Source of the DNA: a virus | DNA: 60,189 nt | Direction: 5' to 3' (one strand) | Virus record (IMG/VR): IMGVR_UViG_3300037247_001852 | Coordinates: 1-60,189 of that record | In this document: positions 1,065-52,314 of the stretch, piece by piece | Layout: each line of letters starts with the position of its first letter | How positions within the stretch are numbered: position 1 is the stretch's first letter | Made by a program: the position numbers and the translations under genes | Notes under the pieces: generated by a model | What the model saw: the letters and a program-made list of their open reading frames with translations, nothing else | The model's database searches: none | Told to the model about the DNA's origin: nothing

Positions 1065-1403
1065 GTGGCTGGCAGTATCAGGCTTAGCGAACTCGACGCG
1101 GAGTTTTTCGTTATCGAATCGCCGACCCTGTTTCGGCGCGTCGACATACTCACAGGCTCCAACGGCCTGATGTTTTTATGCCCGAAGTGCTACGCTGAGA
1201 AGGGCGACACGATCGGCGTCCACCGCGTGATCTGCTGGTTCGTCGGCGTAGATCCGGCGATCGATCCGAAGCCCGGCCGCTGGAACCCGTCAGGCACCGG
1301 CATCGACGACATCACCTTCGTCGGCCCGGGCGCGGCGAGCGTGTTGCTGACGGCCGGCTGCCGCTGGCACGGCTTCATCCGCAACGGCGCGGCTACGTTA
1401 TAG
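1065..1403 (+). CDS. Conserved phage protein of unknown function, Cys/His-bearing
   Basis: 112 residues, GTG start chosen from the upstream TACAGT and lack of any Shine-Dalgarno. A CPKC pair in the first half and a later C-x-W-H-G-F motif (CRWHGFIRNG) near the C-terminus suggest one metal site. The pattern 'PGRWNPSGTG...' between them is typical of a family I have seen in many phages without assigned function. It precedes the endolysin cluster. Confidence 0.7.
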   Translation: MAGSIRLSELDAEFFVIESPTLFRRVDILTGSNGLMFLCPKCYAEKGDTIGVHRVICWFVGVDPAIDPKPGRWNPSGTGIDDITFVGPGAASVLLTAGCRWHGFIRNGAATL

Positions 1404-20386: not shown

Positions 20387-20527
20387 GTGACGAGACCGGG
20401 CCCCTCTGAGCTCTCCAGCGAGCGCGCGACGCCCGCGTCGTCGTTGTTCCTGCCCGGTCCGACGTTCGTCGCGGTTCGTTCGCGCGTTCTCTGGAGGGTT
20501 CCGGGGTCGTCGGGGTGGAGTTCGTAG
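20387..20527 (+). CDS. Possible leaderless 46-residue leader reading frame
   Basis: GTG 8 nt after TATAGA. It encodes a Pro/Ser-rich 46-residue product without a recognised family. Its stop overlaps the start of the replication gene at 20515, whose own Shine-Dalgarno is too distant (GGAGGG about 15 nt away), so it could couple translation. It may equally be untranslated leader. Confidence 0.3.
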   Translation: MTRPGPSELSSERATPASSLFLPGPTFVAVRSRVLWRVPGSSGWSS

Positions 20528-50692: not shown

Positions 50693-50971
50693 GTGAGACT
50701 CGCCATCGTCCTGGGATTGATCCTGACCGGCTGCATGCCGCCGGACAAGCCCGCGGAGCCCGACGCCGGACCACCCGTCGCGGTCGACGACGGCTGGTGC
50801 ATCGACACGCCGCCACCGCAGCCCGTGCCCGGCACCGGGCAGGAGGCGCCGGAGTACCCGGAGGAGTTCGCGATCTGCCTGCACGAGGAGGAGCGCTGGC
50901 TGCTGGTCCTCTACATCACGAGCCTGCGCGACTGGTCCGAGGACCTGTACGCGGCGCGCCGCTGCGACTAG
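50693..50971 (+). CDS. Small lipoprotein
   Basis: 92 residues. Signal sequence with lipobox Leu-Thr-Gly-Cys14 (VLGLILTGC). A Pro-rich stretch follows (~17-50), then a helical end. Predicted to be anchored to a membrane facing the periplasm; might be an outer-membrane spanin subunit or superinfection-exclusion lipoprotein. GTG start, leaderless. Confidence 0.6.
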   Translation: MRLAIVLGLILTGCMPPDKPAEPDAGPPVAVDDGWCIDTPPPQPVPGTGQEAPEYPEEFAICLHEEERWLLVLYITSLRDWSEDLYAARRCD

Positions 50972-51021
50972 AGCGGACTTCACGCAGCGGGAACCGGGAC
51001 CGCCGCTACCCAGAGAGCAAT

Positions 51022-51067
51022 CCGGAGTAACGTCAAGAATCGCTCCGGAGTAACGTCAAAAATCGCT
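51022..51067. repeat. Two tandem 23-bp direct repeats
   Basis: 51022-51044 and 51045-51067, each beginning CCGGAGTAACGTCAA and differing at one base (G or A). They lie 31 bp upstream of the promoter at 51098. Confidence 0.8.
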
Positions 51068-51097: not shown

Positions 51098-51128
51098 TGG
51101 ACAACGGTCGTAATCGTGCTTACATTAT
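51098..51128 (+). promoter_or_regulatory. Promoter with GTAA-N6-TTAC dyad
   Basis: TGGACA (51098-51103), 17-nt spacer, TACATT (51121-51126). GTAA-N6-TTAC spans 51110-51123. CGTAAT-N2-TGCTTACATT is shared with the minus-strand promoter at 12774-12791. Confidence 0.6.
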
Positions 51129-51134
51129 AAGTAA

Positions 51135-51213
51135 GGGAGAGAGAGGAGCCAGTCGGGACCTCAGCCCCTCCACGGAGGCATCTGATGACGATCGACTGGC
51201 TCCTCTCTCTCCC
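51135..51213 (+). promoter_or_regulatory. Leader RNA hairpin, perfect 21-bp stem
   Basis: Arms 51135-51155 and 51193-51213 are perfectly complementary; loop 37 nt. The left arm starts at the predicted transcript start and is almost all purine. The loop holds GGAGG (51174-51178), the ribosome site of a leader peptide, and CCCTCC (51166-51171), complementary to that site and to the SD GGAGGG at 51222. Confidence 0.75.
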
Positions 51214-51235
51214 TTGTGTCTGGAGGGACGCATGA
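51185..51235 (+). CDS. Leader peptide (16 residues)
   Basis: ATG with GGAGG 6 nt upstream in the hairpin loop; encodes MTIDWLLSLPCVWRDA, with two Trp and one Cys. Its coding region runs through the right arm of the 21-bp stem, so a translating ribosome would open it. Its TGA overlaps the ATG of the next gene (ATGA). Confidence 0.5.
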   Translation: MTIDWLLSLPCVWRDA

Positions 51236-51489
51236 CCTACGAGAAGATCAACCGCCGCCACGTCCGCCGGATCGAGCGCCTGCTCCGTGGCGCGAAGCGA
51301 ATCCATCACTGCGTCGCGCCCGTCGGCTCTCCGGATCCCTACGTGCCGGCATCAGCGACGGTCGAGGAAGTGCTCGAGGCGATTAGGAATGGTTGGGCGC
51401 GCGAAGTCGTGTTGCTCGACGACGATCTCGACGGTCGCCGATTGATCGTGCAGCGATACTCGACTGACTGCTACCGGGCCGTCCTGTAA
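51232..51489 (+). CDS. Hypothetical protein under hairpin/leader-peptide control
   Basis: 85 residues, ATG after GGAGGGACGC. Basic helical front (RRHVRRIERLLRGAKR), then 'TVEEVLEAIRNGWAREVVLLDDD'. Family not recognised. It has its own promoter, leader and terminator, so it is an autonomous unit inserted after the portal gene. Confidence 0.65.
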   Translation: MTYEKINRRHVRRIERLLRGAKRIHHCVAPVGSPDPYVPASATVEEVLEAIRNGWAREVVLLDDDLDGRRLIVQRYSTDCYRAVL

Positions 51490-51513
51490 GGGCCGCAAAG
51501 TGGCGGTGCACAG

Positions 51514-51536
51514 AGCCCCCTCGTCGGGGGCTTTTG
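51514..51536 (+). terminator. Intrinsic terminator
   Basis: AGCCCCC (51514-51520), 5-nt loop, GGGGGCT (51526-51532), then TTTG. Confidence 0.75.
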
Positions 51537-51572: not shown

Positions 51573-51615
51573 GGCCCGAGTAATATTCTACTCGGGCCGA
51601 GTACTATGTTACTCG
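51573..51615. repeat. Two tandem palindromes with CGAGTA half-sites
   Basis: GGCCCGAGTA-N6-TACTCGGGCC (51573-51598) and CGAGTA-N6-TACTCG (51598-51615), centres 21 bp apart. The second contains the stop codon of the minus-strand gene. This may be an operator pair or a terminator for that gene. Confidence 0.7.
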
Positions 51616-52112
51616 AAGAAGTCGGCGACGCGATCCTCGGCGCGCCGCACGTCGTCCGGCTTGCGGAGTGCGTCGGCGTAGGCGTCGACCGTCCGCCGGC
51701 GCACGCTCATCGGGCCCACGCCGATCTCGTCGTCGGGGTCCCGGACCGGCTCGACGAACGGCTCGGCGACGTTCCCGCGCCCGCGTCGGCCGTGCTGGTG
51801 GGTGTTGAAGTCGGACCGGAGCCCGCGTAACTCGCGCTCGAGGCCGGCGACGTCGCGGGCGCACTCGTCGATCCGCCAGCTCAGCTTCTTGTACATGGCG
51901 CGCGCGGCGTCCCGGAGCTCGGACTCTCGGAAGGTCGCGGTCTGCGCCTGGCCGGCGCCGGCGGCCGCCTGCGTCTGCGCGGCCTGCGTCTGCTGGTACT
52001 GGAGGAACATCATCAGGGCCACGCCGATCCAGCCGCCGCCCTTGGCGTATGGTAACAAGGCCCCGACGGCTTCGGCCGCGACGCGCTTCTTCTTCTCTTC
52101 ACAGTTCGGCAT
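51609..52112 (-). CDS. Membrane-anchored coiled-coil protein, opposite to its neighbours
   Basis: 167 residues; ATG at 52112, 8 nt after a TACACT hexamer, no Shine-Dalgarno. A hydrophobic segment at ~20-40 ('GGWIGVALMMFLQYQQ'), Gln/Ala-rich linker, then a coiled coil (~60-110) and an acidic/basic tail. The only minus-strand gene in the structural region; probably an accessory (moron) gene. Confidence 0.6.
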   Translation of the reverse strand: MPNCEEKKKRVAAEAVGALLPYAKGGGWIGVALMMFLQYQQTQAAQTQAAAGAGQAQTATFRESELRDAARAMYKKLSWRIDECARDVAGLERELRGLRSDFNTHQHGRRGRGNVAEPFVEPVRDPDDEIGVGPMSVRRRTVDAYADALRKPDDVRRAEDRVADFFE

Positions 52113-52120
52113 CAGACACC

Positions 52121-52130
52121 AGTGTAAACT
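52121..52130. promoter_or_regulatory. Divergent overlapping leaderless promoters
   Basis: The 10 bp AGTGTAAACT read TAAACT on the plus strand (52125-52130, 7 nt before ATG 52138) and TACACT on the minus strand (52126-52121, 8 nt before ATG 52112). The two hexamers overlap by two bases. Confidence 0.55.
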
Positions 52131-52137
52131 ACCCGCC

Positions 52138-52314
52138 ATGGAGCAGCCGATCGAATACGAGGACTTGACCGACGGCGTCGACCTGGAGCGTCAAGGACAC
52201 CGAACGGACGACGACGCGGAGCGGTGCTGGTGCGACCCCGAGGTCGAGGTCGTCCGCAACGACGACGGAGAGTACGTCGGCGAGCTCGTGATACACCGCG
52301 GCTTCGAGGAGTAG
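52138..52314 (+). CDS. Small acidic protein
   Basis: 58 residues, about one third Asp/Glu, with a CWC motif. The start is supported by the TAAACT hexamer. Next gene follows after 3 nt. No family. Confidence 0.5.
   Translation: MEQPIEYEDLTDGVDLERQGHRTDDDAERCWCDPEVEVVRNDDGEYVGELVIHRGFEE

What the first reader, a model, noticed from the sequence alone, without database searches (positions are those of the whole stretch)
51098..51535. Self-contained leader-peptide/hairpin switch controlling an unknown 85-residue gene
Promoter, then a perfect 21-bp hairpin starting at the predicted +1. Its loop holds a ribosome site (GGAGG) for a 16-residue peptide. The peptide's codons run through the right arm and its stop overlaps the start of the main gene, and an intrinsic terminator ends the unit. 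All parts are visible in sequence. Translation of the peptide would melt the stem and feed ribosomes to the ATGA overlap. This matches translational-attenuation logic but not any phage leader I know.
Basis: partly seen in the sequence, partly recalled or inferred. Interest (0 to 1): 0.85.

Follow-up and report, generated by a model that had tools for sequence, protein, structure and literature searches.

The report
Phage mini-gene hairpin ahead of orphan gene
An uncultured phage carries a small stand-alone gene whose message begins with an unusually long perfect hairpin, and the hairpin's loop and right arm encode a 16-residue peptide that ends exactly where the main gene starts; the anatomy is real, but how, or whether, it controls the gene is still inference because no relative of the gene was found.

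Summary
The anatomy is confirmed, with corrections. The stem is 23 bp and perfect (26 pairs with flanking G·U), not 21. It is the longest perfect short-range stem in about 1 Mb of this and related phages; shuffles reach 16 bp at most. In its loop lie GGAGG and the ATG of a 16-codon ORF. That ORF's stop overlaps the ATG of an 85-codon gene (ATGA), and a terminator follows.

First, the 85-codon gene has its own SD (GGAGGG, 51222-51227) outside the long stem, and folding calculations show the stem barely changes access to it. Second, the peptide's own ribosome site is locked in the loop (about 28 kcal/mol to clear a 30S footprint), so peptide translation cannot readily open the stem once it has formed. 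This inverts erm/cat attenuation.

Best reading: a self-contained accessory (moron-like) gene in a variable portal-downstream slot, with a short-ORF translational-coupling leader. Coupling would work mainly on nascent RNA, with RNase III processing as the main rival.

No relative of the gene, hairpin or peptide was found, so covariation and conservation could not be tested. The right arm is also identical over 23 nt, in frame, to a lon protease gene; probably coincidence.

The parts
51021..51066 (+). Tandem 23-bp direct repeat (two copies, 22/23 identical) just upstream of the promoter; candidate activator/operator site
   Evidence: found nowhere else in the window, 0 expected in shuffles; the only tandem repeat of period 16-39 at this identity. 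Function inferred.
51098..51126 (+). Sigma-70-like promoter TGGACA-17-TACATT; predicted +1 about 51133
   Evidence: 9/12 matches. The only exact TATAAT in the window lies on the opposite strand at 51124-51129, so the site may be bidirectional.
51133..51155 (+). Left arm of the 23-bp perfect hairpin; purine-rich, contains SD-like AGGAG
51174..51178 (+). Leader SD GGAGG in the hairpin loop
51185..51235 (+). 16-codon leader ORF MTIDWLLSLPCVWRDA plus TGA; its codons run through the right arm
   Evidence: Sequence; chance rate 0.6-4% for a 5-nt SD, depending on definition
51193..51215 (+). Right arm of the hairpin
51216..51231 (+). 6-bp hairpin GTGTCT-GGAG-GGACGC that carries the main gene's own SD (GGAGGG 51222-51227)
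   Evidence: -6.1 kcal/mol alone; formed in MFE folds
51232..51489 (+). 85-codon orphan gene; start overlaps the leader stop (ATGA 51232-51235)
   Evidence: G+C by codon position 0.69/0.44/0.80 is a coding pattern with lower GC3 than neighbouring genes; no relatives found
51513..51535 (+). Intrinsic terminator-like stem-loop with T tract
   Evidence: stem 51517-51530; extension read from the sequence

Best explanation
The unit is a self-contained accessory (moron-like) gene: promoter, 5'-terminal hairpin, short upstream ORF, orphan gene, terminator. It sits in a variable slot between the portal gene and a minus-strand gene shared with the nearest relative. Most likely the short ORF acts as a ribosome-delivery (translational-coupling) leader. 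A ribosome that loads on nascent RNA before the right arm is made, possibly helped by the purine-rich left arm as a standby site, translates the 16 codons. This keeps the stem and the small SD hairpin open, and the ribosome terminates on the AUGA overlap where it can re-initiate. Once the stem closes, the leader start is locked in the loop, and the orphan gene depends on its own SD with a stable stem abutting the 30S footprint, giving low output. Shown: the anatomy, the computed energetics, and the rarity of the stem. Inferred: transcription start, leader translation, coupling, and all function.
For: Perfect 23-bp stem beginning at the predicted +1. Strong SD plus ATG in the loop and a stop overlapping the main start, 0.6-1.8% by chance for the ATG/5-nt-SD definition. 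Leader SD/AUG cost only 3-4 kcal/mol to open before position 51198 is transcribed and about 11 afterwards. The main 30S footprint costs about 19 kcal/mol with the stem, 15 without it, 10-13 when the transcript starts in or after the right arm. Four-nt overlaps are common in this phage (15/88). The main ORF has a coding composition. Known precedents: phage f1 VII/IX, coupled with -4 spacing and a long hairpin ending just upstream of gene IX (PMC12548453); short ORFs that deliver ribosomes to coupled genes (same review).
Against: The main gene has its own good SD outside the stem, and its access hardly changes with the stem. The time window for nascent loading is short (about 10-20 nt of RNA). 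The leader shows no coding bias of its own (log-odds -1.1). A 16-codon ORF can arise by chance (4-10% on looser definitions). No relatives exist to test conservation.
Confidence: 0.42

Rival explanations
1. The hairpin is an RNA-processing or stability element. RNase III cuts the long perfect duplex, or the 5'-terminal stem shields the message from 5'-end-dependent decay. The orphan gene is translated from its own SD and the 16-codon ORF is accidental.
For: The stem is longer than one turn of A-form helix, perfect and at the 5' end. A 5' end within the right arm lowers the cost of clearing the main 30S footprint from about 19 to 13 kcal/mol. The main SD needs no leader. RNase III sites at leader peptides, and 5' hairpins that block RNase E, are known in E. 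coli (PMC5371410).
Against: It does not explain the SD-ATG-ATGA coincidence. 10 of 10 other E. coli leader-peptide transcripts were not RNase III substrates in vitro (PMC5371410). The host is unknown.
Confidence: 0.33
2. Classical translational attenuation (erm/cat type): a stalled leader ribosome frees the main gene's SD from the stem.
For: Leader peptide plus long stem plus downstream gene.
Against: The long stem does not cover the main SD, and its access is the same with and without the stem. The leader's RBS is in the loop rather than free upstream.
Confidence: 0.06
3. The 83-bp inverted-repeat unit is a small mobile or recently duplicated DNA element (MITE- or MIRU-like) that landed at the start codon and kept the gene expressed through the -4 overlap. 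The arms are perfect because they are recent.
For: Perfect terminal inverted arms. MIRUs are mobile elements whose internal ORF becomes coupled with -4 spacing at start codons (PMC12548453). Absent from relatives.
Against: No second copy in the genome, in plasmids or phages. Arm k-mers in viral contigs are never in a comparable hairpin. No flanking target-site duplication is evident by eye. The unit would have to start exactly at the predicted +1.
Confidence: 0.1
4. Early/late transcript switch of the T4 type: read-through RNA folds the stem, while a transcript starting inside the unit escapes it.
For: T4 I-TevI, segB and Aeh1 mobE use hairpins with nested late promoters. Aeromonas phage 25 seg43 has a very stable hairpin immediately upstream of an unsequestered RBS (PMC2988022).
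Against: The only promoter-like site on the + strand lies upstream of the stem, so its transcript includes the stem. The RBS is not sequestered by the long stem.
Confidence: 0.09

Closest known systems
Phage f1 genes VII/IX translational coupling (as described in PMC12548453)
   Same: -4 nt stop/start overlap; [quoted passage not shown]
   Different: There the upstream ORF is a real gene that starts upstream of the hairpin; here it is a 16-codon ORF whose start is inside the loop
seg43 of Aeromonas phage 25 (as described in PMC2988022)
   Same: Very stable hairpin directly upstream of an RBS that is not itself sequestered, in a phage accessory gene
   Different: No leader ORF is mentioned there; our gene is not recognisably a homing endonuclease; the function of that hairpin was said to be undetermined
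erm/cat translational attenuation (PMC5118997 and general knowledge)
   Same: Short leader ORF plus hairpin in front of a gene
   Different: There the leader RBS is free and the stem hides the main SD; here the leader RBS is trapped in the loop and the main SD lies outside the long stem
MIRU elements of mycobacteria (as described in PMC12548453)
   Same: Short unit with a small ORF coupled to the downstream gene through a -4 overlap
   Different: No other copies found; no sequence comparison with MIRUs was made
Lambda N leader with RNase III hairpin (general knowledge; cited in PMC5371410)
   Same: Phage leader hairpin upstream of a gene's RBS that may be processed by RNase III
   Different: No nut/boxA site was examined; a leader ORF is present here

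Membership tests
erm/cat-type translational attenuator | Main gene's SD is base-paired in the leader stem and freed when the stem opens | tested here: not met
   SD 51222-51227 lies outside arms 51133-51155/51193-51215; SD opening cost is 5.4 kcal/mol with or without the stem on transcripts to 51260 and 51489
erm/cat-type translational attenuator | Leader ORF has an accessible ribosome site on folded RNA | tested here: not met
   Leader SD/AUG costs about 11 kcal/mol and its 30S footprint 28 once the stem is complete
erm/cat-type translational attenuator | Inducer-dependent ribosome stalling on the leader peptide | not testable with these tools
   Needs toeprinting or ribosome profiling
Translational coupling through a -4 (ATGA) overlap | Upstream stop overlaps downstream start | tested here: met
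   ATGA 51232-51235
Translational coupling through a -4 (ATGA) overlap | Upstream ORF is translated and the downstream gene depends on it | not testable with these tools
   SD-ATG present; chance rate 0.6-4%; conservation untestable
T4-type hairpin sequestration of a late-gene RBS | Stable stem contains the RBS, with a late promoter nested so that late RNA lacks the stem | tested here: not met
   RBS outside the long stem; promoter-like site upstream of the stem
MITE/MIRU-like mobile element | Multiple copies at unrelated sites, or target-site duplication | tested here: not met
   Single copy in the genome; no copy in phages or plasmids; arm matches in other contigs not in hairpins
Any Rfam family | Score at or above the gathering threshold | tested here: not met
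   0 matches in the window
RNase III leader substrate (lambda N type) | Double-stranded stem of about 20 bp or more that is cut in vivo | tested here: inconclusive
   Stem length met; cleavage not testable here

The most novel reading that the evidence does not exclude
A 'loop-start' translational latch: the start site of a short ORF is enclosed in the loop of a stem made of the ORF's own codons. Only nascent transcripts caught by a ribosome before the right arm emerges express the coupled downstream gene, and mature RNA is largely shut. I know of no characterised natural phage leader with the leader RBS in the loop and the leader codons forming the stem.
Probability: 0.22. Interest if true: 0.65.

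Novelty: new variant of a known kind. Interest (0 to 1): 0.42.

Why it matters
If the leader works as inferred, expression of the accessory gene would be restricted to RNA still being transcribed under active ribosome loading, using one short stem and no protein regulator. It would be a compact, testable case of co-transcriptional translation control in a DNA phage. If the RNase III rival holds, it is an ordinary processed 5' leader on an orphan moron gene.

Tried and rejected
Relatives of the 85-residue protein: viral contigs, phages, genome contigs (22), plasmids, 50 related phage records (65), Pfam/PHROGs/NCBIfam/PADLOC (only a sub-threshold CBS hit in Pfam, E 0.014, and a meaningless NCBIfam one), PDB sequences (26, best E 0.059). 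None convincing. AlphaFold without an alignment gave pLDDT 62.6, and Foldseek found no match at E <= 0.001, so no fold is claimed.

Hairpin relatives: exact arm patterns in viral contigs and genomes gave only coincidental non-hairpin matches; no comparable stem in the portal-to-downstream-gene slot of 22 related loci.

Leader-peptide pattern in viral contigs: 0.

Terminator reading of the long hairpin: rejected, since no T tract follows on the + strand. Assembly fold-back artefact: considered unlikely, because the sequences outside the arms are not complementary, as a fold-back chimera would need.

Lon-mimic idea from the 23-nt match to a lon gene: not adopted. By my estimate exact 20-mer hits of this kind are expected about 0.5-0.8 times in that collection, and similarity stops outside the 23 nt. 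PDB and Pfam scans of the extended leader found no Lon.

Papers: no described phage leader with this layout was found, in a partial open-access library.

Full report
What is there. The window is a 60,189-base virus record with terminase, portal and head genes around 45.7-55.2 kb. Between the portal gene (ends 50651) with a small lipoprotein-like gene (50693-50971) and a minus-strand gene (51609-52139) lies a self-contained unit: a tandem 23-bp repeat (51021-51066), a sigma-70-like promoter (51098-51126), a hairpin (51133-51215), a 16-codon ORF (51185-51235), an 85-codon ORF (51232-51489) and a terminator-like stem (51517-51530 plus T tract).

The hairpin is far beyond chance. It has 23 perfect pairs (not 21) with a 37-nt loop, extending to 26 pairs with G-U. 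Sixty Markov re-simulations of the window give at most 16, and nothing in 1.04 Mb of related phage DNA and this window exceeds it. Folding gives -68 kcal/mol, z -6.3.

The upstream ORF is plausible but less secure. It has GGAGG at 51174-51178, 6 nt before ATG 51185, and its TGA overlaps the main ATG. By chance this happens in 0.6-1.8% of leaders for an ATG with a 5-nt SD, and in 4-10% under looser rules. Its codon log-odds are slightly negative, but a 16-codon ORF gives little signal. The main ORF has a coding composition (0.69/0.44/0.80 G+C by codon position, GC3 lower than neighbours), consistent with recent acquisition.

Mechanism. On transcripts to 51260 and 51489 the cost of opening that SD is 5.4 kcal/mol with or without the long stem (within about 1.6 at other end points), and SD plus AUG is 8-10 in all cases. 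Only the full 30S footprint is affected: about 19 with the stem, 15 without it, 10-13 if the RNA begins in or after the right arm. The leader's start costs 3-4 kcal/mol on RNA ending before 51198, about 11 after 51201, and 28 for a full footprint on complete RNA. So the stem mainly controls the leader, not the main gene, and leader translation can open the stem only if it begins before the stem closes. This gives the preferred model (nascent-only leader translation coupled through AUGA) and its main rival (RNase III processing or 5' stabilisation, leader accidental). The data do not separate them.

Relatives. Seventy-five loci encode terminase relatives at 25-58% identity. None encodes the 85-residue protein or a comparable hairpin in the corresponding slot, whose cargo differs from phage to phage. 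The nearest, L013, shares the minus-strand neighbour (45% identity by tblastn; 49% in the alignment) but has other genes in the slot. The unit therefore behaves like a moron: an accessory gene with its own promoter and terminator. With no homologue, covariation and peptide conservation cannot be assessed; the searches would have missed very diverged relatives.

Known systems. The layout is nearest to phage f1 VII/IX coupling and to the unexplained hairpin of Aeromonas phage 25 seg43 (PMC12548453; PMC2988022). It fails the defining features of erm/cat attenuation and of T4-type RBS sequestration. A MIRU-like mobile element is possible in principle, but no further copies were found.

Oddity. The right arm plus two bases (ATCGACTGGCTCCTCTCTCTCCC) is identical to part of a lon gene of a Geobacter MAG, in the leader's reading frame (IDWLLSLP). 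A degenerate pattern for that motif occurs in 21 of 297 genomes of the phylum against 1 reversed-control match; that these 21 are all lon was not checked. I treat this as probable coincidence and record it.

Noticed in passing
window 51191-51213; L125 5181-5203 (minus): Hairpin right arm identical over 23 nt, in the same reading frame, to a lon protease gene of a Geobacter MAG (IDWLLSLP, within the conserved YIDWLLSLPW stretch of that Lon). The left arm would be antisense to such a lon mRNA. Probably chance, but odd.
   Followed up: partly
window 51124-51129 minus strand: The only exact TATAAT in the window is on the minus strand, overlapping the + promoter's -10 region; possible bidirectional promoter.
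   Followed up: partly
window 51578-51614: Two tandem GAGTA-N6-TACTC-type palindromes at the 3' end of the minus-strand gene, overlapping a minus-strand promoter-like site (51612-51585) that would read antisense through the unit.
   Followed up: partly
window 51021-51066: Tandem 23-bp direct repeat, unique in the window, upstream of the promoter; candidate activator site.
   Followed up: partly
window 20403-20506: Second-strongest stem in this genome (27-bp span with mismatches/G-U, 50-nt loop), in a stretch without a called gene between two gene blocks.
   Followed up: no
window 1170-1403 and L013 8136-8462 (minus): Related small proteins (shared stretch CWFVGVDPA.DPKPGRW.PSGT) occur near the left end of the window but in the portal-downstream slot of L013, suggesting exchange of accessory genes between slots.
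   Followed up: no
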